From IMG/VR virus record IMGVR_UViG_3300021335_000026, positions 1 through 50,906 of that record: a stretch of DNA of 50,906 nucleotides, one strand, 5' to 3'. The stretch is from a virus. Shown here in pieces: positions 572 to 32,508 of the stretch; the stretch's first letter is position 1; each line of letters starts with the position of its first letter. The translations under genes were made by a program, and so were the position numbers. The notes under the pieces are model-generated. The model was given only the letters and a program-made list of their open reading frames with translations. It was not told where the DNA came from and searched no databases.

Positions 572-964
572 ATGAAACGTAAAAAACGTATTTCAAAAAG
601 AAAGTACAGCAACGACTTTTGCAAAATGGTTGCTAATCGTGTATCAAACTCAACAATTGGTAAAGTAGCAGATGCATTGGACATGAAATATCATGATGTT
701 CAATATATCAATCAAGAGTACTATCGAAGGTTAAAAAACAATGAATATGGTAAGGTATCTATCAAACCACAACAAACAGGACGAATTTATCTAAAACCCA
801 GAGTAATCGGGTTCAAAGATATAAAAACTGCTTGGACTGTGATTGATTCAAACTTTACAGATGATCAAATTGATATAATTCACAAGTTTTACAACACAGT
901 ATTATTTGAAACAAACAGTATCACTGCTAACGATCTAACAACAGCTAGCTATGAACAAGTCTAA
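572..964 (+). CDS. Hypothetical basic protein, 130 aa
   Basis: The N-terminus is strongly basic (KRKKRISKRKYS). Residues around 18-50 (DFCKMVANRVSNS, then GKVADALDMKYHDV) have the spacing of a helix-turn-helix, so it may bind DNA. No family is recognised. The start follows an AT-rich leader (TTTTAATTATT). The end overlaps the peptidase gene by 14 bases, which implies translational coupling. Confidence 0.6.
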   Translation: MKRKKRISKRKYSNDFCKMVANRVSNSTIGKVADALDMKYHDVQYINQEYYRRLKNNEYGKVSIKPQQTGRIYLKPRVIGFKDIKTAWTVIDSNFTDDQIDIIHKFYNTVLFETNSITANDLTTASYEQV

Positions 965-2030
965 GTTTACTAAAAACCTTTGTAAACTTGTTTCAATACA
1001 AAGCACATCATACAATACTAGACAAATGATGCGGCATATAAAAGGAGTAGTACAGTCAATTGGTGGCTGTACTATCTCCTATGATAAATATGGTAACATG
1101 TATGTAACAAAGGGTGATGGACCATACCCAGTTATGGTATGTCACACAGACACAGTTCATGATATAGTAAAAGAACCAATTGCTGCATGTATTGCTAAAG
1201 GTAATATTGTTGCATTCAAAACATTATCAATGGAACAAGTCGGTACAGGTGGTGACGACAAAGTCGGTATACACATAACGCTTGAACTGCTAAAAAAACA
1301 TAAGAATATGAAAGCTGCTTTCTTTCTTGATGAGGAAGTTGGTTGTATTGGATCATCGAATGCTGATTTCAAATTTTTTGATGATTGTTTATTTGTACTT
1401 GAATGTGACAGACGTGGTGACAATGACTTTGTAAATAGTATATCTGGGACTAAATTGTATGACAAAAACTTTTCAGATGCGATCAAAGTAATACTTCAAA
1501 AATACGGTAGAACAGAATGTTCAGGAGGTATGACTGACGTCGTTGAAATTGCATACGAAACAGATTTACCTGTAGCTAACATGTCATGTGGTTACTACAA
1601 ACCACATACTGATGAAGAATATATCAACATAAATGATGTAATTAACACATACAAACTATGTGATGATATATTCAAATACATCAATGTAAAATATAAAGTT
1701 AAAGACAAACGTAGTTCATGGTATTCTGGATATAGTGGATACGGTGGAAACAATTACAATCGTTGGGGTGGTTATGACTTTTACTATGAAAAAAACTACA
1801 ACACGGAATACGAAGTTGACGAAACAGAAATTGGTTCAATGTTAGAACTAGAAGAAGCTGTTAAAAAAACTTGTGGAACACAATGCCATATGATTGATGG
1901 ATATTGTGATGCATGCATGATGCATGTGGAAGAAATGTATGAATTTTATAACGGACCTTATGAGACTAAATCTATTCCAATGGAAGAACCTGTACAAACT
2001 TTCAGACTTCCTAGTAAATCTTCTGATTGA
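951..2030 (+). CDS. M20-type zinc peptidase (PepT/aminopeptidase-like)
   Basis: Predicted dinuclear-zinc exopeptidase acting in the cytoplasm on small peptides. All the M20 zinc-site elements are visible in order: HTD (His65, Asp67), GTGGDDK with Asp102/Asp103, DEE with Glu128/Glu129, ECD with Asp153 and a late His219 in YYKPHTDEE. A GGMTDV segment near 192-197 matches the family's mid-region. The catalytic fold ends near residue 250. It is followed by a Gly/Tyr-rich linker (about 255-285) and a tail with clustered Cys (CGTQC, YCDACM) that may bind metal. It is shorter than cellular PepT (about 400 aa), so the dimerisation lid may be reduced. Family assignment is strong; substrate and role in infection are unknown. 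Confidence 0.82.
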   Translation: MNKSKFTKNLCKLVSIQSTSYNTRQMMRHIKGVVQSIGGCTISYDKYGNMYVTKGDGPYPVMVCHTDTVHDIVKEPIAACIAKGNIVAFKTLSMEQVGTGGDDKVGIHITLELLKKHKNMKAAFFLDEEVGCIGSSNADFKFFDDCLFVLECDRRGDNDFVNSISGTKLYDKNFSDAIKVILQKYGRTECSGGMTDVVEIAYETDLPVANMSCGYYKPHTDEEYININDVINTYKLCDDIFKYINVKYKVKDKRSSWYSGYSGYGGNNYNRWGGYDFYYEKNYNTEYEVDETEIGSMLELEEAVKKTCGTQCHMIDGYCDACMMHVEEMYEFYNGPYETKSIPMEEPVQTFRLPSKSSD

Positions 2031-3651
2031 ACAAGGCGAAGGCTCTATATATGATGATGGTATATTATGTAGATGGTTCAATAAATGGATCAACGATGAT
2101 ATTATAGACACAAGTCAATTGCCTCCTGCATTTAAATATATTGAATCAAAACAGTTTGTAGTATTTGACTACAAAAAATATGATCAAGATTATGGTGTAT
2201 GGTTTATCAATAACGACTCATCAATGTATTTATTCAATGATCAATCATTTGAACCATTAACATGCGACACCATGGAATTAACATACATGAATCGTATGCG
2301 TGTACCGTTTTTTGTAAATCATGGTATATCATTTCATATAAACGGTGGTGCATTAGAAGCAAGTTATTATGACCAAAATCATAATAATAAAATAATGAGT
2401 GCTGGTAAAGCAATAAAAAACTTACCATGGCTTGTAAAAAAAACAGATGCTGATATTGAAAAATTGGTAAATCAAGTAAAAGCAAAACTAGATCCAACAA
2501 TAAAATTCAGTATTGTTTCGGGTGTAGATATATTATACTGGTATCATGGTCAAAACTATGCAGAAAATTCAGGGTCTTTGTCAAGCAGTTGTATGCGTTA
2601 TGGTAGATGCCAGGATTACTTAAGAATATATTCTGATAATCCTGTTGAAATGCTAATTGCAACTGATGAACAAAATAAACTACGTGGTAGAGCTTTACTT
2701 TGGCCAAGAAGCATGTGGAACAAAAACTATTGGGATAATGTTGATTATATTATGGATAGAATCTATGGTAAGGATCATATAATTGAAAAATTTAAACAAT
2801 ATGCTCAAAATAGACAATGGGTATATAAAAATAGACAAACATATCAAGAAGTTGATACTTGGCGAGTGCCAGGTAATTACGAATTATGTGTAAAAAGATG
2901 TCGTATGAATTTAGATAATATAAACTTTGATGAATATCCATATATGGATACTTTCAATCGTATTGACTGGGATGATAAATGTTTAAAAAATCATGGTACA
3001 GGGTCAATACTTGATAGTACAGAAGGTTATTCTCGTGAAACAGAAAGCTGTAATAGTTGTGGTGCTGAATGTAATGAAGATAATACATCATGGGTAGATG
3101 ATGATAGGTATTGTGAGGAATGTGCAGTATATTCAGAATATTCTGATTGTGATTTATTGAGAGATGCATGTCGATACTCAGAAGTTTTACAGTCCTATAT
3201 ACATGATGATGATGCAGTTGAAATAACACATGGTAGTTATATAAATGACTTTACACACTATGATGATATTGTAGAAGTTTATAATAATAATACAATAGTT
3301 GTTCCAGAATGCGATGTAACAACTTCACATGCACCTGTTCCGTTTATATGTGGTGATGATATATTACGTATAGACTTCATCAATAATCAAGATACAAATT
3401 ATTTAATTGCTTCATTATCAGAAATGTATAATGAAAGATGTTGGGAAGAATTTATGTTGGATGTATATAGTAATATACGTTCAACACTTGATGCAACAGA
3501 CATTGACGCGCGTGTGGTAAGTGTAGTTATAAAAACAATGGGTGAGCATGTAGAAGTACCTATCAATGATAACTGGTCTGAAATTCTTCATGAAACTATG
3601 TGTGCAATTGCAGAACACTATCCTGCTAACTTTGAATCTTTAACTATATAA
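1924..3651 (+). CDS. Large hypothetical protein with SSSCMR motif and a zinc-binding cluster
   Basis: Function not recognised. Residues 220-225 (SSSCMR) followed by a Tyr/Gly-rich stretch and RGRALLWPR near 257-265 recall a conserved pattern in uncharacterised proteins of large phages. The C-terminal half carries two CxxC pairs, Cys376/Cys379 and Cys397/Cys400, plus Cys383, giving a plausible zinc ribbon. The region is rich in Asp and Tyr. The ATG at 1924 would overlap the peptidase gene by 107 bases. In-frame ATGs at 1939 and 1960 give smaller overlaps and are equally possible, so the true start is uncertain. The tight overlap suggests it is made together with the peptidase. Confidence 0.65.
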   Translation: MWKKCMNFITDLMRLNLFQWKNLYKLSDFLVNLLIEQGEGSIYDDGILCRWFNKWINDDIIDTSQLPPAFKYIESKQFVVFDYKKYDQDYGVWFINNDSSMYLFNDQSFEPLTCDTMELTYMNRMRVPFFVNHGISFHINGGALEASYYDQNHNNKIMSAGKAIKNLPWLVKKTDADIEKLVNQVKAKLDPTIKFSIVSGVDILYWYHGQNYAENSGSLSSSCMRYGRCQDYLRIYSDNPVEMLIATDEQNKLRGRALLWPRSMWNKNYWDNVDYIMDRIYGKDHIIEKFKQYAQNRQWVYKNRQTYQEVDTWRVPGNYELCVKRCRMNLDNINFDEYPYMDTFNRIDWDDKCLKNHGTGSILDSTEGYSRETESCNSCGAECNEDNTSWVDDDRYCEECAVYSEYSDCDLLRDACRYSEVLQSYIHDDDAVEITHGSYINDFTHYDDIVEVYNNNTIVVPECDVTTSHAPVPFICGDDILRIDFINNQDTNYLIASLSEMYNERCWEEFMLDVYSNIRSTLDATDIDARVVSVVIKTMGEHVEVPINDNWSEILHETMCAIAEHYPANFESLTI

Positions 3652-4587: not shown

Positions 4588-4733
4588 GATATCAGATAAA
4601 CGTATATTATGGAGGTGAAATGGATGACGAAACATGGTACGCTAGTTCACTCAATGATGCTCGACGTATATCAACAAGAGGAGAGCATCAAGAAATAATT
4701 GACACTAAAACAAATAAAATCGTAGAATTATGA
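4584..4733 (+). CDS. Small hypothetical protein, 49 aa
   Basis: ATGA overlaps join this frame to both neighbours (4584-4587 upstream, 4730-4733 downstream), a strong sign of a real coupled gene. It starts MRYQINVYYGGE and continues ETWYASSLNDARR. An internal ATG at 4620, preceded by GGAGGTGAA, offers a second start giving 37 residues. No family is recognised. Confidence 0.5.
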   Translation: MRYQINVYYGGEMDDETWYASSLNDARRISTRGEHQEIIDTKTNKIVEL

Positions 4734-5230
4734 GTATTTACACAAAACTGTTTGACATCCAACAGGAAATAGGAGCTATTTCGAAGGATTCTAAAAACCC
4801 TTTCTACAATTCAGCATACTTTGACATCAACAGCTTGATTGCTCAACTTATGCCGCTTTTAAAGAAAAACAAAGTGCTACTCACACAGCCAATTGAAAAT
4901 GGAACTGTAATGACTAGACTAACTTGCATTGAAAAGGGTAATTTTGTAGAGGGAGGAATACCTCTACCTGACATTCCAGATCCACAAAAAATGGGAGGTG
5001 CTATAACATATTACAGAAGATATAGTTTAGCCTCACTGCTAGGTCTTCAAGCACAAGACGACGATGGTAATAGCACAGTAAATTCTGCTAAAAGCAAGCC
5101 AATGCTAAATCAAGCTGGTCTTGATTGGATTCTAACAAAAGGCACAAAGCAAGATGCTATTGATGCTTTAGCAAAACGTACCGTAAAACCAGAACATCAA
5201 AAACTAATTAAAGCTAAATTTAAATTATAA
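4730..5230 (+). CDS. erf: Erf-family single-strand annealing protein
   Basis: Predicted recombinase that anneals complementary single strands during phage recombination and end repair. Residues 84-114 carry the ERF-family signature: DPQKMGG, then AITYYRRYSL, then LLGLQAQDDDGN. The N-terminus (FDIQQEIGAISKDSKNPFYN, followed by AYFDINSL) also fits the family start. At 166 residues it is a little shorter than P22 Erf (about 200). The downstream exonuclease starts in a TAATG overlap, and SSB follows, reproducing the usual annealing protein, exonuclease and SSB set. Confidence 0.85.
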   Translation: MSIYTKLFDIQQEIGAISKDSKNPFYNSAYFDINSLIAQLMPLLKKNKVLLTQPIENGTVMTRLTCIEKGNFVEGGIPLPDIPDPQKMGGAITYYRRYSLASLLGLQAQDDDGNSTVNSAKSKPMLNQAGLDWILTKGTKQDAIDALAKRTVKPEHQKLIKAKFKL

Positions 5231-5958
5231 TGGAATTTAAGGAAATCATCAAGACTCTTCGCAAAGACGATGAGTATTACAACGGAATTGGCAAAAAGTA
5301 TTTGTCAAACTCTAACATCGAAACATTATTGAAAAACCCAAAAGATTTTGGGGTTCCAACGCAAAAAACAATACCGATGCTTATGGGTAATGCTGTTCAT
5401 GAAATTACTTTTTTTGGATCAACAGCTCTGCCATCAATTGACGTTTCTTCTAGAAACACAAAAGCATACAAAGACAGAGATATGGATGGTCCTGTGCTTT
5501 TGAAAAAAGAACTCGATGAATGCCACAGGATCGCTGACACGTTGAGAAAAACAAAAGCTGCTGAAGTGTTATTTGAAGATGTGAATATATATGAGGAACC
5601 CATGGTTAAAGATCTATTTAGTAATGGAGTTCTATGGAAAGGCAAGGCAGATATTATTAGCCCTGTTGTCAATAAAATTATTGATTTAAAAACAACAAGT
5701 AATATCGACGCATTTGCAAGTAAGGCTAGAATGTACAATTATGACAGTCAAGCTTGGATATACAAACAACTTTTTGATTTAGACATGATGTTTTTTGTTA
5801 TAGAAAAAGACACCATGCGTATGAAACAAATTGAAGTTTCAGATGAAACTTTAGAAAAAGGTAAAATGAAGGCTATTGAAGCTGAGCAAAATTACCTGGA
5901 TATGTTCGTCAACAAAAGCATTGATCCAGCTCAATATGTGGAGTATGGGATCATTTAA
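5230..5958 (+). CDS. PD-(D/E)XK exonuclease (YqaJ/RecE-like)
   Basis: Probable double-strand exonuclease that makes 3' tails for the Erf protein. Visible elements are GNAVHE with His57, GKADI with Asp141, IIDLKTT with Asp152 and Lys154, and QAWIY with Gln174, in the order typical of the lambda-exonuclease, YqaJ and Cas4-like group of the PD-(D/E)XK superfamily. No iron-sulphur cysteine cluster is seen. The length of 242 residues fits. It overlaps erf by one base in TAATG. Superfamily assignment is firm; exonuclease polarity is inferred from context. Confidence 0.8.
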   Translation: MEFKEIIKTLRKDDEYYNGIGKKYLSNSNIETLLKNPKDFGVPTQKTIPMLMGNAVHEITFFGSTALPSIDVSSRNTKAYKDRDMDGPVLLKKELDECHRIADTLRKTKAAEVLFEDVNIYEEPMVKDLFSNGVLWKGKADIISPVVNKIIDLKTTSNIDAFASKARMYNYDSQAWIYKQLFDLDMMFFVIEKDTMRMKQIEVSDETLEKGKMKAIEAEQNYLDMFVNKSIDPAQYVEYGII

Positions 5959-7553: not shown

Positions 7554-9337
7554 ACGAAATCAACGGCTATACAATAAAAACATACAACCAGTATGGATTC
7601 AAGCAGGATGCTAAAACTGATATATGTCCAAAGTGTTCACACGAAAGAAAAAAGAAGAAAGACAAGTGTGTGATGTTAGATTGGGAAAGGGCACTTGCAA
7701 CATGTCAGCATTGTGGTAGTGTAATGCAAATGCATGAGTACGAAAAGAAAAACCAAACAAAAACTTATATACGCCCTGTAGAAAAGGAATACACACCTTT
7801 AAATGAAAAGGTTATACAATGGTTTGAAGGAAGAGGAATAAGTTCGAAAACAATAAACTACCTTAGTATAACAGACGGACTAGAGTGGATGCCTCAAACA
7901 AAAACAGAAGTTCACACCATACAATTCAATTACTATCTAGATTCACAATTAGTAAATACAAAATATCGTGATGCTAGAAAGAATTTTAAAATGGTTAAGG
8001 ATGCAGAAAAAATATTCTACAATCTAGACTCTATAAGATTTACAGATCAAGTTGTAATCGTTGAAGGTGAAATGGATGTAGCGTCAGTGATTGAGTGTGG
8101 AATAAATTACTGTGTAAGTGTGCCGAATGGTTTTACTGCAAGTGGAAATATAAATCTTGACTTTTTATCAGACTACTACGAGTTTTTCGAAAACAAAAAG
8201 AAAATATATTTAGCCACAGACAATGATGAAGCAGGGAGAAAAGGTAAAGCTGAATTAATTAGAAGGTTTGGCGCAGAAAACTGTTTTCTTGTAGACTTAA
8301 ACGATTGTAAAGATGCAAACGAATACTTGATTAAATATGGAAAAGATTCACTCAGAGAAGCTATTGTTTCTGCACCACAGTGTCCGCTAGAAAATGTTGT
8401 GACTGCAAAAGATGTCGCTGCAGACCTAGAAAGTTTTTATAAACATGGGCATCAGAAAGGTTTTGGTATTGGATTAAAAGAATTTGATAGCATATTTACA
8501 ACCTATACAAAACAGTTTATTGTTGTGACTGGGTTTCCGTCTTCAGGAAAATCTGACTTTGTAGATCAAATGTGTGTTGGATACAATATGTTATATAATT
8601 GGAAGATTGCATATGCTTCAACAGAAAATTTTCCAGCATATCTTCATGTAGATAAAATTGTAAGAAAGTTTTATGGAAACAAACCTGATGAAAATCAAGT
8701 CAAACATGCTGAGTGGATGCAAACTGTAAATTATGTTGGTGATAATTTTTATCACATAAATTATGATGACGGATATGATTTGGAAAAAGTTCTAAAGAAG
8801 GGGGAAGAGCTTGTAAAAAGAAAAGGAATTCGTTGTTTAGTCATAGATCCGTACAACAAAGTAAGATTTAAAGATGGTAAAAATTTAAGCATTAATGATT
8901 ACACTAATGAATATTTAAACAAAATTGACAACTTTTGTAAGAAGCATGATGTTCTAGTAATACTTGTGGCACACCCTACAAAACCAGAAAAGATTGATGG
9001 CAAATTGCAACCACCAACTTTTTATGATGTAAAGGGTGGAGGAGAATTTTACGATATGAGTCCTCATGGAATACTTGTTCACCGAGACAGAACAGAGGAG
9101 GGACTTCAAAATAATTCTGTAACGATAAAAGTATTAAAAGTAAAATTTGCAAACCTAGGGACAAATGATGCTTCGTGTAATTTTGTTTGGAATGTAAATA
9201 ATGGCAGATACGATAGTGTTGTAGATGATGTGCCTGAATGGGATAATTCAAATTGGTTGAAGAATCAAAGAAATAAAGTAAAACAAACAGTTTTAATAGA
9301 AAAAGAATTAAATGAGATCAAAGAAAAAAGTTTCTGA
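7550..9337 (+). CDS. Bifunctional primase-helicase (T7 gp4-like)
   Basis: Fused primase and DnaB-type helicase of 595 residues. A four-Cys zinc site (Cys26, Cys29, Cys52, Cys55) opens the protein. The TOPRIM domain shows VVIVEGEMD with Glu172 and the metal-binding TDNDEAG at 223-229. The RecA-like helicase core shows Walker A GFPSSGKS at 328-335, Walker B LVIDP with Asp433, and a conserved VILVAHPTKP segment near 477-486. This is the order of T7 gp4. It would unwind and prime at the fork. It overlaps both neighbours, and no DNA polymerase is visible in this window. Confidence 0.9.
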   Translation: MNEINGYTIKTYNQYGFKQDAKTDICPKCSHERKKKKDKCVMLDWERALATCQHCGSVMQMHEYEKKNQTKTYIRPVEKEYTPLNEKVIQWFEGRGISSKTINYLSITDGLEWMPQTKTEVHTIQFNYYLDSQLVNTKYRDARKNFKMVKDAEKIFYNLDSIRFTDQVVIVEGEMDVASVIECGINYCVSVPNGFTASGNINLDFLSDYYEFFENKKKIYLATDNDEAGRKGKAELIRRFGAENCFLVDLNDCKDANEYLIKYGKDSLREAIVSAPQCPLENVVTAKDVAADLESFYKHGHQKGFGIGLKEFDSIFTTYTKQFIVVTGFPSSGKSDFVDQMCVGYNMLYNWKIAYASTENFPAYLHVDKIVRKFYGNKPDENQVKHAEWMQTVNYVGDNFYHINYDDGYDLEKVLKKGEELVKRKGIRCLVIDPYNKVRFKDGKNLSINDYTNEYLNKIDNFCKKHDVLVILVAHPTKPEKIDGKLQPPTFYDVKGGGEFYDMSPHGILVHRDRTEEGLQNNSVTIKVLKVKFANLGTNDASCNFVWNVNNGRYDSVVDDVPEWDNSNWLKNQRNKVKQTVLIEKELNEIKEKSF

Positions 9338-26847: not shown

Positions 26848-29800
26848 TTAAGGTGTTGTAGTGTCTACTTTAGTAGAATCTGTTATATATATATTAAATG
26901 TTGCTGCGGAGTCTCTTGTTGCATCCAAAGGAAAATCATCTTGAGAATCTGGAACGCCATCATTATCATCATCTGTGTCCAGATAATCATACGTGCCATC
27001 TCCATCTGTATCAACAGGTGTGTCGCTTGAGTCTAATGGATCTGTGCCAGCAGCAGCTTCTTCTGTATCGCTAACTCCGTCTCCATCATCGTCTGTGTCA
27101 GCATTATTTCCTATGCCATCACCATCTGTATCAACACTTTCACTAGCATCCAATGGGAAGGCATCACTTGAATCAGGAACACCATCATTGTCGTCATCTG
27201 TATCCGCATTATCTCCTGTACCATCTCCGTCGGTATCTGCACTTTCAGATGCATCATTAGGAAAAGGATCACTGTTGTCGCCTACTCCATCTCCATCAGA
27301 ATCTACTGTTTCGTTGGGGTTTGTGGGGAATGCGTCTGTTCCATCAGGAACCCCATCATCATCACTGTCTGTGTCCAAAGGATCTGATCCTTGAGAAATC
27401 TCTACTGTATCAGGGACTCCGTCTCCATCATCATCAGTATCTACAGTGTTATCTATACCGTCTCCATCAGTATCCAAAGACCTGTTAGGATCATTTGGAA
27501 AAGCATCTGTTCCGTCTGGCACACCGTCATTGTCTGAATCAGAGTCTAATGGATCTGTTCCATCTAACACTTCCTGAGCATCAGTCACTCCATCGTTATC
27601 ATCATCAGTATCAGCGTTATCTCCCGTTCCGTCCCCATCAGTGTCTGTCGTTTCATTTGGATCTGTTGGGAAAGCGTCTAAATTATCTGGACTTCCATCA
27701 TCATCTGTATCAGCGTCTAAAGGATCTGTAGCTGGAGTAGAACTTGTTTCTGTTGCATCTGGTATTGTGTCTCCATCATCGTCTGTATCAGTATTATCGC
27801 CAATACCATCTCCATCTGTATCTGTTGTTTCAGTAGCGTCAAGAGGGAAAGCGTCTGTGCCGTCATTTACACCATCATCATCTGTATCAGAATCTAATGG
27901 ATCTGTTCCATTAGCAGTCTCTGTGACATCAGGCACTCCATCACCATCGTCGTCTGTATCTGCATTATCTCCTGTACCGTCGCCATCTGTATCTGTGGTC
28001 TCACTAGAATCTGTAGGGAATGCATCTGTTCCATCATTTACTCCGTCATCATCAGAATCTGGATCTAATGGATCAGTTGGTGGTGTACTGCTTGTTTCTT
28101 GGGTATCTGTAAGACCGTCATTATCGTCATCAGTATCAGCGTTGTCACCTGTCCCATCTCCATCTGTATCAACTGTTTCTGTAGGATCAGTTGGAAAAGC
28201 ATCATTAACATCTGCTGTACCATCATTATCATCATCTGTATCAACAGTGTCGTCTATATCATCGTCGTCGCTATCTGTGGTTCTAGATGGGTCTGTAGGA
28301 AAATCATCAGATGCGTCTGGAACACCGTCTCCGTCGTCATCTGTGTCAGCATTATCTCCAGTTCCATCAGCATCAGTATCGGTTGTTTCAGAAGGATCAT
28401 TTGGAAAAGCATCTTGCTGATCATTTACGCTATCACCATCGGTATCAGCGTTTGTTGAGCTTGTCGATGTAGGAGGACCTGTTTCTTGACTATCTGGAAT
28501 TCCATCGTTATCATCATCTGGATCATGAATATCAGGTATACCATCACTATCCGTGTCAGTTGTTATTTCTTCTTCTGGATCTGTTGGAGTTGTGTCCGTT
28601 GAATCAGGTGTTCCGTCTCCATCATCATCGGCGTCTGTATTATCTCCTATTCCATCCCCGTCTGTGTCAGTTTGCTCTGTTGGATCTAATGGGAAAGCAT
28701 CAGTTGTGTCTGGAGTGCTATCTCCATCATCATCTGTATCTAAAGAGTCAACTGTACCGTCACTATCTGTATCCGTGTCATCATATAATATTTCACACTC
28801 AACTTCGTCTTCTCTCCACTCCTCCTGAGTACCTTTCATAGATATACTTAGTTGTCTATCTCTAGGATCGTAGCCAGCAATTACAGACCTAGGGTTGTCA
28901 ATAGAAAGGTTGTCGTTAAAGAAATCAATCATTCCAGCATCAGATATCTGATTAATTCGATCTCCTGCTAAAGCGCAAACAACACGTCTTCTTTCATCAA
29001 CAAAATATACAACTCCACCCCACATAATTACTGAAGATGGATTTGCACTTACCCCATACTCACCACCAAAAGCAATATCCTGACCCAAAACGCTTCGAGA
29101 TTGAGAAACATTCCCTGTGCCATCTGCGTTAAATAATACACTTTTATTAAACAGTAATTTAGATACTCTATTTTCTTGAAATACAACAAGGTCAGATTCT
29201 CTAGAAACTATTTTTGTAATGTCCCCGAAAAAATCATCCATGTCCTTAAAATTGACTTCAGACAAATTAAATTCGTTCAAACCATTATATTTTGTGGTTT
29301 GTGAATAAACATTACTATATGTAAGAGAGGTTGTTCTGTTGTTTTGCTTGTAGTCTACTAAATTTACTGATGGTCTATTTTGTAGTTCAAAATATTTTAG
29401 TAAAAACTGATCTTTAATTTTATAAGACTCGATACAATTCCCCCAAGAAAAAACATTGAAGAAATCTAGTGTTATTCTTGCAGGAGAGTTATGAGTTTGG
29501 CTAACGTCTACATCATCTCCAAACACTACTGTAAAATCGCCTCCAGCATTTGTAAAAGATCCAGAACCACTTACGTAGTTGCTCGAATCCATATTGCCTC
29601 CAGAAGGGTTGGTATTGAAGAAAGTTATTCTAGTTCCTCCAGTTACATCATATCTTTGAAAATACTGAACTGCAATGGTTATAGTGGCACTACCTTGTGT
29701 AAGCGTTAATTCTTTACCATTTCCATTACCAAAACTTCCGTTGTTTGGACCGCTTCCTCCAGTAAAATAATTTGCAAATGCTGTATAAGAATCAGTATCA

Positions 29801-32508
29801 AGAGCTATTTGAATTTGATAACCATTGCCAGTAAAAGGATCAGATGAAAGTGCAGGAAAGTTATCCCAATTATCACTGTCTGGATAATTATTAGTGTTTG
29901 TGTATCCTATTGTGGAGGCTGCGCTTAAATTGGTATTTGCTTGTGTTAATGTAGAAGTATCTTCTGGGACTAGTCCAGCACCAACAGGTCCAGATTGATG
30001 ATATCCGTCTGTTATTGAGTATGTTCCTGGTATTTCATAAAATATTTCGTCATTCTTATCATCACCTCTAGTTTCTAAAGTGACGATGTCTGATGATTGT
30101 CTTTTTAGAAAAGATATAGATGAATTAATCTTAACTCTTTTTGCTAAATCGTTTTGTTGTTCATACTGCGATCTCACTATCATCAACAAGTCGTCGCCAA
30201 CATTAGCTGTGATATTAGAGCTGCTTGAGCCATACGTCCCTCTCAAGAAAAATATTCTATCCTCATCTATGTCAGCGGTTAAAGTTGCTTTTGCACCGCT
30301 TTCATGATACCATTCTTCTAAATTTTGATAGTCTGCATTAGAGGTAAATTCATGTGTTATAAATTGATCTCCCCTATTATATTCATCATATTGAAAATTA
30401 ATGACCGTTCCAAGAGGTATTTGTTCTTCAGATTTTGATCCTGATTGAAAAGTGGCAAACCCCCTACTGTATCTAGGATAAGAAAATGTTTGTGGTCTTG
30501 CGTTTACTACCCATCTGTCTCCTAAAGTATGCCCAGTGGCAGATGCAAAATCTACACTTAAGCCTGTTCCTGGAATTGATATAGGAGTTCCAACTGTTAT
30601 TGCCTGTGCTGTCGTTGTTGATCCTGTATTAGCGTCATTGTCAAGGGTGTTTACAATAGTCGTAAAAGTATCACCTGAGGGATTTACTGCATCTATTTCT
30701 ATTGTGATTCTAGAAAAAACACTTGAAGTTGTATACGATCCTGAAATAGTAACATCTGTCTCAACAGCAGAACTTCCAACGACAGGGTAAACGAAAGGAC
30801 CTTCAAAATAAGCCGCACTTCCTGTTTGTGAGTTCGCTAAAGGATCGCTTCTGTTGTTGCTGCTGTCATCAAAATCAGAAAAAGAAGTTAAATCATAATC
30901 ATCTCTTGATATTGAAAATCCAACAGGTTTTATTTTCATGTATAAACCTGCTTGCTGAGCAATTTGAGGATCTCCTGATGCAGGATAATCGTCTGACTCC
31001 AAAAAGTTTCTTTGCTGAAGACTCACTTCTAAAACCTGTGTTTCAACAAGTCCTGTTTTTTGCCCTCTAGTATCCGCTTTTACTATTAAAAAATCACCCT
31101 CTTTTACCTTATCTTTGTCACTACCATTTAATTGTATGTAAGTGAATCCTGTTTCATTGTCTTCATAAAATATGGCAGGAGATATAGTTTCGTGTTTTCC
31201 CTTGCTTTGCTTTACATAAAATCTATAGTATTTAGCGAACTGAGGAGGCAAATGTGATACATCTACAGAAAATTCATTTTTAGTTTTTGATGCGCTTATA
31301 GGCACAAATTTAGATGCGTTTTGCGACGTAAGAACTGTTGTTGATCTTCCGTAGTCGTCTAAATACACCATTCCTATTTCATAATCAACATTTGTCTTAA
31401 TACTTTTTTCTGCATTAGGAGCAGTGATTGTTGATGTATTTAAATTTGTGGTTATGTTTGCTACAACTGGATCACCGTTTGCATCTATGAGATTAAAATT
31501 CTCTTTGTAGTTTGCATATACCAACCTATTTCCTATAAGTTGTTGTGTTTGAGCAGTTAAAGGAACATTATCATAAACTCTAAGAAGTTCCGATTCTGCT
31601 AAAACTTTAAATACTTTATTGTTTTTAAAAAGATATGTGTTGTTTGTGTTGTCAGATAAATTTTGATTTGTCTTATTTATAGTCTCTATAACGTATATGT
31701 TAGGAGAATTACTTTCTTTAAATAATAAATCTACTTCAACTACGTTTTTAGAACCTGTATTGTATTCTATTGTAACATCACTGTATGCGTTAACCATTGA
31801 AGTATTAAGTCCTACAGAAAAATCAATTGAAAACGTGTTTGGGAAAAACCCTATTTCTGAAAAGGGCGATATAGCACTGTATTCACCATGTTTATATTTG
31901 TATCTATATGAAAAATATAAAAACCTTTCTTTAATACTGTTCTCTAGAGCATTACTATTTCCAAGCGTAATACTAGGTGGACTTAATGGTGGCTGCTGAA
32001 TAACATCCAAATCATATTTAGTGTATGTGTTTGCGTCTGTTATCTTAGCAGATTCTACCTCCACTCTTCTCGGCGGGTTGATTCCGTCAGTAAAAAATAT
32101 AAATTTCTTGTTGTTGTCAATATCTATGAGAAGATTTGACTGAATGAAATTTGTTTTGTAAAAATTAAGAACATTTTCTTTCCAAGGTCTAGTGTCCTTC
32201 AAAACAAAAGTAGAAGTGTCATTGTCCTTGTCGTATTCTGCCAAGTAACTTCCTGCATCAGATCTTACAAACCAATATATTTTATTGTTTGCATCATCAG
32301 CAATTGAACCAATACATACAGGATTTGCGCCAAAGTCAAGCTGACTTAGACCTTCATTAGAAAGGCTGTTCTCTAATGCTCCCACATCAGATCCTGAAGA
32401 TCCAATAACTTTTACATTCAAAGCGTCTCGAAACTCCCCTTCTTGAACCAATCTCTCATCGAGATCCTTGTTCATTTTTCCAGTAGAAAAAAGGCTCTTT
32501 ACCTTCAT
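26848..32508 (-). CDS. N-terminal part of gp10-like stabilisation protein fused to a TSP3 repeat array
   Basis: 1886 residues in two parts. Residues 1 to about 1240 resemble the N-terminal propeller part of stabilisation proteins from crAss-like phages: GKMNKDLDERL, GEFRDALNVKV, GSDVGALENSL, and later VVYFVDERRRVVCALAG and VIAGYDPRDRQLSISM. From about 1241 to 1864 the chain is almost entirely thrombospondin type 3 repeats (DTDGDG and DTDDDGDGVPD units alternating with DAFPxDPxET). These are calcium-binding loops common in Bacteroidota surface proteins. A short beta-like end (FNIYITDST) follows. The normal C-terminal region is missing and found in the gene at 22342-23310. It probably forms the tail nozzle with calcium-stiffened arms. 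Confidence 0.78.
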   Translation of the reverse strand: MKVKSLFSTGKMNKDLDERLVQEGEFRDALNVKVIGSSGSDVGALENSLSNEGLSQLDFGANPVCIGSIADDANNKIYWFVRSDAGSYLAEYDKDNDTSTFVLKDTRPWKENVLNFYKTNFIQSNLLIDIDNNKKFIFFTDGINPPRRVEVESAKITDANTYTKYDLDVIQQPPLSPPSITLGNSNALENSIKERFLYFSYRYKYKHGEYSAISPFSEIGFFPNTFSIDFSVGLNTSMVNAYSDVTIEYNTGSKNVVEVDLLFKESNSPNIYVIETINKTNQNLSDNTNNTYLFKNNKVFKVLAESELLRVYDNVPLTAQTQQLIGNRLVYANYKENFNLIDANGDPVVANITTNLNTSTITAPNAEKSIKTNVDYEIGMVYLDDYGRSTTVLTSQNASKFVPISASKTKNEFSVDVSHLPPQFAKYYRFYVKQSKGKHETISPAIFYEDNETGFTYIQLNGSDKDKVKEGDFLIVKADTRGQKTGLVETQVLEVSLQQRNFLESDDYPASGDPQIAQQAGLYMKIKPVGFSISRDDYDLTSFSDFDDSSNNRSDPLANSQTGSAAYFEGPFVYPVVGSSAVETDVTISGSYTTSSVFSRITIEIDAVNPSGDTFTTIVNTLDNDANTGSTTTAQAITVGTPISIPGTGLSVDFASATGHTLGDRWVVNARPQTFSYPRYSRGFATFQSGSKSEEQIPLGTVINFQYDEYNRGDQFITHEFTSNADYQNLEEWYHESGAKATLTADIDEDRIFFLRGTYGSSSSNITANVGDDLLMIVRSQYEQQNDLAKRVKINSSISFLKRQSSDIVTLETRGDDKNDEIFYEIPGTYSITDGYHQSGPVGAGLVPEDTSTLTQANTNLSAASTIGYTNTNNYPDSDNWDNFPALSSDPFTGNGYQIQIALDTDSYTAFANYFTGGSGPNNGSFGNGNGKELTLTQGSATITIAVQYFQRYDVTGGTRITFFNTNPSGGNMDSSNYVSGSGSFTNAGGDFTVVFGDDVDVSQTHNSPARITLDFFNVFSWGNCIESYKIKDQFLLKYFELQNRPSVNLVDYKQNNRTTSLTYSNVYSQTTKYNGLNEFNLSEVNFKDMDDFFGDITKIVSRESDLVVFQENRVSKLLFNKSVLFNADGTGNVSQSRSVLGQDIAFGGEYGVSANPSSVIMWGGVVYFVDERRRVVCALAGDRINQISDAGMIDFFNDNLSIDNPRSVIAGYDPRDRQLSISMKGTQEEWREDEVECEILYDDTDTDSDGTVDSLDTDDDGDSTPDTTDAFPLDPTEQTDTDGDGIGDNTDADDDGDGTPDSTDTTPTDPEEEITTDTDSDGIPDIHDPDDDNDGIPDSQETGPPTSTSSTNADTDGDSVNDQQDAFPNDPSETTDTDADGTGDNADTDDDGDGVPDASDDFPTDPSRTTDSDDDDIDDTVDTDDDNDGTADVNDAFPTDPTETVDTDGDGTGDNADTDDDNDGLTDTQETSSTPPTDPLDPDSDDDGVNDGTDAFPTDSSETTDTDGDGTGDNADTDDDGDGVPDVTETANGTDPLDSDTDDDGVNDGTDAFPLDATETTDTDGDGIGDNTDTDDDGDTIPDATETSSTPATDPLDADTDDDGSPDNLDAFPTDPNETTDTDGDGTGDNADTDDDNDGVTDAQEVLDGTDPLDSDSDNDGVPDGTDAFPNDPNRSLDTDGDGIDNTVDTDDDGDGVPDTVEISQGSDPLDTDSDDDGVPDGTDAFPTNPNETVDSDGDGVGDNSDPFPNDASESADTDGDGTGDNADTDDDNDGVPDSSDAFPLDASESVDTDGDGIGNNADTDDDGDGVSDTEEAAAGTDPLDSSDTPVDTDGDGTYDYLDTDDDNDGVPDSQDDFPLDATRDSAATFNIYITDSTKVDTTTP
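26915..28785 (-). repeat. Thrombospondin type 3 calcium-binding repeat array (coding)
   Basis: About 620 residues built from Asp-rich loops, with roughly a dozen long units of about 35-50 residues, each containing DTDGDGxGDN, DTDDDxDGxPD and DAFPxDPxET or a DPLDxDxDDDG variant. At the DNA level this gives imperfect repeats rich in CCATC, TCATCATC and CTGTATC on the + strand. The units differ at many third positions, so it is an old array kept by selection rather than a recent tandem duplication. Confidence 0.9.

What the first reader, a model, noticed from the sequence alone, without database searches (positions are those of the whole stretch)
951..2030. Phage-encoded M20 zinc peptidase with complete metal site and an added Cys-rich tail
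Exopeptidases of this family are cellular nutrient enzymes, not standard phage genes. All five metal ligands are present, so it should be active. The extra C-terminal Gly/Tyr linker and Cys cluster are not part of usual PepT. Possible roles are recycling peptides during infection, trimming a phage or host peptide, or removing a peptide signal.
Basis: partly seen in the sequence, partly recalled or inferred. Interest (0 to 1): 0.6.

Follow-up and report, generated by a model that had tools for sequence, protein, structure and literature searches.

The report
Phage zinc peptidase with obligate partner gene
The phage gene at 951-2030 encodes an intact, probably active zinc peptidase of a family already known from hundreds of phages, but it almost always sits next to one particular, never-described phage protein, so the two very likely work together in a process during infection that nobody has yet studied.

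Summary
The ORF at 951-2030 (359 aa) is real and under purifying selection. It has the complete di-zinc site (H65, D102, E129, D153, H219, plus catalytic D67 and E128). It is not a PepT with an extra tail. It is a single-domain MH-clan peptidase that lacks both the M20 lid and the M42 barrel. The best curated Pfam match is M42, and it belongs to PHROG_4191, found in about 400 sequenced phages. The Gly/Tyr linker and Cys cluster are a family trait: a zinc ribbon present in about 95% of close relatives. The main result lies outside the given coordinates. The next gene (about 1939-3651) belongs to an undescribed phage family ("SCM proteins": invariant Ser-Cys-Met, Arg, Tyr, Tyr-x-Asp, then zinc-binding repeats). 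In 31 of 34 non-redundant loci with both flanks, an SCM gene is directly adjacent, upstream or downstream. The pair occurs from crAss-like Cellulophaga phages to Klebsiella, Vibrio, Enterococcus and Thermus phages, and expands to 8+14 copies in one 636-kb phage. Published phi38:1 proteomics, remapped here, shows both proteins are made during infection. The SCM core is weakly GNAT-like. Best guess: the SCM protein makes or holds a modified substrate that the peptidase trims. That mechanism is unproven.

The parts
951..1688 (+). single-domain MH-clan di-zinc peptidase core (residues 1-246): H65, D67, D102, E128, E129, D153, H219
   Evidence: Pfam M42 5.6e-8; PHROG_4191 9.5e-52; AF2 pLDDT about 95 or more; Foldseek PepT 2.7e-12, M42 4.8e-12, lid-less DapE domain TMt 0.71; conservation
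1698..1838 (+). Gly/Tyr-rich flexible linker (about residues 250-296)
   Evidence: pLDDT <50 at residues 262-288; Gly/Tyr-rich in nearly all relatives
1839..1952 (+). C-terminal zinc ribbon (C304, C308, C319, C322)
   Evidence: Cys columns conserved in 53-54 of 56 relatives; one relative's tail hits Pfam Zn_Ribbon_TF 3.4e-6; pLDDT about 75
1939..3651 (+). partner gene, 'SCM protein' (570 aa if it starts at 1939; 1924 and 1960 are alternative ATGs), overlapping the end of the peptidase gene in another frame
   Evidence: partner HMM E 9e-76 in the window; adjacent in 31/34 non-redundant relatives
2326..2838 (+). SCM core domain (about residues 130-300), weakly GNAT-like
   Evidence: AF2 mostly >95 from residue 190; Foldseek top hits nearly all GNATs, best probability 0.72, none E<1e-3; hhalign to a GNAT alignment E 0.01
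2587..2595 (+). Ser-Cys-Met motif; Cys218 invariant
   Evidence: 57/57 in alignment A5; S and C invariant also in Klebsiella, Vibrio, Pectobacterium, Pseudomonas and Enterococcus phage members
3049..3126 (+). CxxC...CxxC zinc-binding stretch of the SCM protein, followed by Tyr/Asp hairpin repeats
   Evidence: sequence and alignments

Best explanation
The gene is one half of a conserved early-region phage module. It encodes an active, single-domain di-zinc exopeptidase or deacylase tethered to a zinc ribbon. Its partner is the SCM protein, a possible GNAT-like enzyme with an invariant Cys and zinc-binding modules. Shown: the two families are linked genetically over very diverse phages, in either gene order, and both proteins are made during phi38:1 infection. 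Inferred: the SCM protein attaches, or carries, a small acyl, aminoacyl or peptide group on a host or phage protein. The peptidase then removes or trims that group, or a terminus exposed on the SCM protein itself, and its zinc ribbon docks it to the partner or target. The purpose is to redirect host or phage proteins during infection, not to recycle nutrients.
For: Linkage: 31 of 34 non-redundant IMG/VR loci with at least 2 kb on both sides have an SCM gene within -145 to +41 bp, on the same strand. The exceptions are L078 (a jumbo phage with 6 SCM genes elsewhere), L092 (SCM gene 3 kb away) and L085. The next most frequent neighbour family is in only 20 of 89 loci. Adjacency survives a change of gene order (2 changes on the peptidase tree). 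Reverse search from SCM proteins: 50 of 76 loci hold the peptidase, 43 of them adjacent. Non-adjacent co-occurrence: Thermus P23-45 and, weakly, Lactococcus LW4; LR756504 has 8 peptidases and 14 SCM matches. Tail-less chromosomal relatives in Bacteroidota lack SCM genes. Both proteins are detected in infected Cellulophaga (PMC13288928 Table 2, remapped). Purifying selection on both. GNAT-like hints.
Against: The GNAT assignment is weak: no Foldseek hit below 1e-3, and the canonical acetyl-CoA loop Q/RxxGxG/A is not seen. SCM genes occur without a detectable peptidase in some large phage contigs (these may be incomplete). KP34-like and Thermus peptidases lack the zinc ribbon but have SCM partners, so the ribbon is not required for pairing. 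No biochemical data were found for either protein.
Confidence: 0.4

Rival explanations
1. SCM is a non-catalytic adaptor: its zinc-binding and hairpin repeats bind chosen host or phage proteins and present their termini to the peptidase, which trims them.
For: Repeated binding-like modules and copy-number expansion of SCM relative to the peptidase (14 against 8 in LR756504); zinc ribbon on the peptidase.
Against: The SCM core carries an invariant Cys and near-invariant Arg, Tyr, Asp and Lys, which looks like an active site; exopeptidases of this fold usually act on short peptides.
Confidence: 0.25
2. Counter-defence or counter-signalling: the peptidase destroys a host peptide or acyl-peptide signal and the SCM protein modifies or senses it.
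For: Early-region position next to recombination genes; patchy but very wide distribution.
Against: No PADLOC match for either protein; no defence link seen in phage loci.
Confidence: 0.12
3. Auxiliary nutrient enzyme: the phage recycles host peptides.
For: Active-site conservation; relatives PepT and M42 are nutrient aminopeptidases.
Against: Near-obligate association with a non-metabolic family; zinc ribbon; position among replication and recombination genes; phage clade separate from PepT.
Confidence: 0.08
4. The two genes are only neighbours in a conserved early operon with no shared function.
For: Both lie in the early region of several phage groups, for example the conserved early ORFs PhiM1_09 and PhiM1_10 (PMC6115819).
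Against: Other early genes are linked far less often (20/89 at best); adjacency persists over order reversal and across unrelated phage groups; co-occurrence without adjacency; parallel copy expansion.
Confidence: 0.1

Closest known systems
PHROG_4191 phage peptidase (Klebsiella Drulisvirus, Vibrio Maculvirus, Cellulophaga phi38:1 and others)
   Same: Same family: 9.5e-52, same catalytic core, annotated 'peptidase' in GenBank.
   Different: The SCM partner and the zinc-ribbon tail have not been described as far as the searches here show; KP34-like members lack the ribbon.
Peptidase T (M20B), e.g. 3gb0
   Same: Metal site and catalytic fold; Foldseek 2.7e-12.
   Different: Lacks the lid/dimerisation domain (about 115 residues missing) and has a C-terminal zinc ribbon; phage clade is separate.
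M42 TET aminopeptidases, e.g. MJ0555 9qr6
   Same: Best curated Pfam match; Foldseek 4.8e-12; ligand order.
   Different: Lacks the barrel insert between ligands 1 and 2 (about 77 residues); TET assembly not testable.
GNAT acyltransferases (for the SCM protein), including phage GNATs such as phiKMV Rac described in PMC7824862
   Same: Similar order of secondary structure beta1 to beta5 and weak structural/profile similarity.
   Different: No canonical acetyl-CoA loop, no alpha4-beta6-beta7 end, invariant Cys, added zinc modules; E-values not significant.
Peptide/amino-acid ligase plus peptidase modules (Iyer/Aravind amidoligase systems, from memory)
   Same: Works-like analogy: a transferase or ligase paired with a peptidase that edits or trims.
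   Different: No sequence relation shown; an analogy only.

Membership tests
M20/PepT | Di-zinc site H-D-E-D-H with catalytic Asp and Glu | tested here: met
M20/PepT | Lid/dimerisation domain inserted in the catalytic domain | tested here: not met
   47 residues where PepT has 162; AF2 single domain
M20/PepT | Pfam M20 curated cut-off | tested here: not met
   15.3 against 24.6 bits
M42 | Pfam M42 curated cut-off | tested here: met
   32.6 against 23.2 bits; 47 of 56 relatives match at E<1e-3
M42 | Beta-barrel insert between first and second metal ligand | tested here: not met
   22 residues where MJ0555 has 99
M42 | Tetrahedral dodecamer | not testable with these tools
   needs purified protein
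M28 | Pfam M28 curated cut-off | tested here: not met
   14.4 against 21.3 bits, although the insert-free architecture is similar
PHROG_4191 | profile match over the catalytic core | tested here: met
   9.5e-52, residues 5-264
Zinc ribbon (tail) | CxxC...CxxC knuckles | tested here: met
   C308, C319, C322 in 53-54 of 56; first knuckle in the window is CxxxC; Pfam Zn_Ribbon_TF in one relative; zinc binding itself untested
GNAT (SCM protein) | GNAT fold | tested here: inconclusive
   Foldseek probability up to 0.72, E 0.03-0.9; hhalign E 0.01, shuffle control unusable because of artefact scores
GNAT (SCM protein) | Q/RxxGxG/A acetyl-CoA loop | tested here: not met
   not present in consensus
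PcfJ (SCM protein) | profile similarity to PF14284 | tested here: not met
   hhalign probability 0.1
Known anti-phage defence proteins | PADLOC profile match | tested here: not met

The most novel reading that the evidence does not exclude
A widespread, undescribed two-component phage system: an SCM enzyme with a divergent acyltransferase-like core and an essential Cys writes a peptide, aminoacyl or acyl mark on host or phage proteins, and the dedicated zinc-ribbon peptidase edits or erases it.
Probability: 0.2. Interest if true: 0.85.

Novelty: new variant of a known kind. Interest (0 to 1): 0.5.

Why it matters
The peptidase alone is ordinary: hundreds of phages carry it. Its near-obligate link to one protein family with no Pfam or NCBIfam match ties together several PHROGs of unknown function (6980, 13313, 18912, 29713 among them) and gives a testable hypothesis for all of them. 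It also turns a vague 'auxiliary peptidase' annotation into a defined two-protein question that can be asked in a cultured phage, phi38:1.

Tried and rejected
Relation of the SCM protein to PcfJ, suggested by eye, was not supported by hhalign. A shuffle calibration of the GNAT similarity failed because hhalign gave artefact scores near 130 over fewer than 16 columns, so no p-value is claimed. A single-protein scan of viral contigs found no relatives; an alignment query was needed. Alignment A7 was too diverse to scan with. A third conserved gene of the module was sought among neighbours and not found; neighbours of SCM-only loci were also uninformative. PADLOC gave nothing for either protein and NCBIfam nothing for the SCM protein. 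Frameshift fusion of the two genes was considered and rejected because gene order reverses and overlaps vary. Literature searches found no description of the pair.

Full report
Observation. The window is a 50,906-bp virus record from IMG/VR. The ORF at 951-2030 encodes 359 aa. The di-zinc ligands H65, D102, E129, D153 and H219 and the catalytic D67 and E128 are present and conserved in 98-100% of 56 relatives. Against the nearest relative (L015), dN/dS is about 0.10 for the catalytic core and 0.30 for the tail. This is a real, maintained gene.

What the protein is. Pfam M42 is the only family above its curated cut-off; M20 and M28 fall below theirs. It matches PHROG_4191 'peptidase' at 9.5e-52. 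AlphaFold2 gives one confident domain, residues 1-250, then a disordered linker and a moderately confident tail. Foldseek finds PepT and M42 enzymes equally well, and the lid-less DapE catalytic domain gives the highest target-normalised TM-score among the listed hits, 0.71. The profile alignments show what is missing: about 115 residues against PepT (the lid) and about 77 against M42 MJ0555 (the barrel). It is therefore a minimal MH-clan catalytic core, not a PepT with an extra tail.

The tail. In IMG/VR relatives the Gly/Tyr linker is followed by a CxxC...CxxC knuckle pair. The Cys columns are filled in 53-54 of 56, and one relative's tail matches the TFIIB zinc-ribbon model at 3.4e-6. The tail is a zinc ribbon and a family trait. 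KP34-like, Vibrio and Thermus copies lack it, and chromosomal Bacteroidota copies L115-L118 end soon after the catalytic domain.

Distribution and tree. tblastn finds 401 phage records, matching only about the first 250 residues. The tree (quick method; long branches warned about) puts the window in a 22-row supported clade. The phage family is apart from cellular PepT; only the Brevibacillus and Bacillus phage copies, which have no partner, group with PepT.

The partner. In many phages a large hypothetical gene lies next to the peptidase. These genes align: S222, C223, R256, Y281 and D342 (1924-based numbering) are invariant and M224 and Y340 nearly so, across Bacteroidota, Klebsiella, Vibrio, Pectobacterium, Pseudomonas, Rhizobium and Enterococcus phages. 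They match several separate PHROGs of unknown function and no Pfam or NCBIfam family. I call them SCM proteins. In the window the partner is the ORF ending at 3651, with a start at about 1939; its start is uncertain.

Linkage. A partner HMM was seeded with 10 proteins and iterated. Of 55 non-redundant IMG/VR loci, 34 have at least 2 kb on both sides of the peptidase, and 31 of these have an SCM gene directly adjacent; over all adjacent pairs the spacing runs from -145 to +41 bp. The three others are a jumbo phage with six SCM genes elsewhere, a locus with the SCM gene 3 kb away, and one without. The next most common neighbour family is in 20 of 89 loci. The partner lies downstream in the window's clade and upstream elsewhere, with two order changes on the tree, so adjacency outlived rearrangement. 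A reverse scan from SCM proteins gave 76 loci, 50 with the peptidase and 43 of them adjacent; of 27 contigs then searched whole, mostly those without an adjacent peptidase, 10 hold one somewhere. Thermus phage P23-45 carries an SCM gene about 30 kb from its peptidase. The 636-kb LR756504 has 8 peptidase and 14 SCM matches. The genomes of three Bacteroidota with tail-less peptidases have no SCM gene.

Expression. A 2026 proteomic study of Cellulophaga infection (PMC13288928) lists phi38:1 gp021 'peptidase' (K244 dimethylated) and gp022 'putative ABC transporter' (R287 dimethylated) among proteins of infected cells. Its numbering equals 59 minus the RefSeq number; all residue positions checked over 11 genes agree. 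The two proteins are therefore RefSeq gp038 and gp037, the peptidase and its SCM partner. Neither is in that paper's list of methylated virion proteins.

SCM fold. AF2 is confident for the core. No PDB match has E<1e-3, but nearly all of the top 50 are GNAT enzymes, and hhalign to a GNAT alignment gives E 0.01 over beta2-alpha3. My shuffle control failed, and the acetyl-CoA loop is absent. A GNAT-like core is a lead, not a result. BFVD matches below 1e-3 are all unnamed or uncharacterised phage proteins apart from one labelled 'putative hydrolase'.

Mechanism. Shown: an intact peptidase, a conserved pair, and expression of both in infection. Inferred: the SCM protein generates or displays the substrate and the peptidase trims it. 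The asymmetry supports this: phage peptidases of this clade are rarely without an SCM gene, whereas SCM genes can stand alone or in tandem. Adaptor, counter-defence, nutrient and mere-neighbour models are ranked lower.

Verdict. The family is known, and the peptidase alone is modest news. The conserved pairing with an undescribed family is new as far as the searches here show.

Noticed in passing
L117 8883-10734, next to peptidase 7992-8675: A tail-less bacterial relative in a Haliscomenobacteraceae MAG lies directly beside an AAA_21 ATPase and a RloB gene, a possible defence neighbourhood.
   Followed up: partly
LR756504.1 (W01), G007, G011: Large phages carry multiplied peptidase and SCM genes (8+14, 4+6, 2+4); LR756504 also has peptidases with long C-terminal extensions.
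   Followed up: partly
L252 1-3964; L256 2056-5128: Tandem arrays of three to five SCM fragments or copies without a peptidase in the locus.
   Followed up: no
L072 1182-2879 and 14 other loci: A GroEL gene on the opposite strand within about 4 kb of the pair in 15 of 89 loci; a GroES-like gene in 10 loci.
   Followed up: no
window 4730-5958: ERF single-strand annealing protein followed by a DUF3799/ExoVIII-like exonuclease, a recombination pair just downstream of the module.
   Followed up: no
window 26848-32508: A 1886-aa protein with a long run of Asp-rich DTDGDG repeats resembling thrombospondin type 3 calcium-binding repeats.
   Followed up: no
NC_021796.1 23070-24398: phi38:1 gp037 is called 'putative ABC transporter' in PMC13288928; it is an SCM protein, so that label is probably wrong.
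   Followed up: yes
L014 4067-4869; L114 1793-2961: The peptidase of Pseudomonas phage C171 and of one Owenweeksia MAG locus is split over two frames; decay or sequencing error.
   Followed up: no
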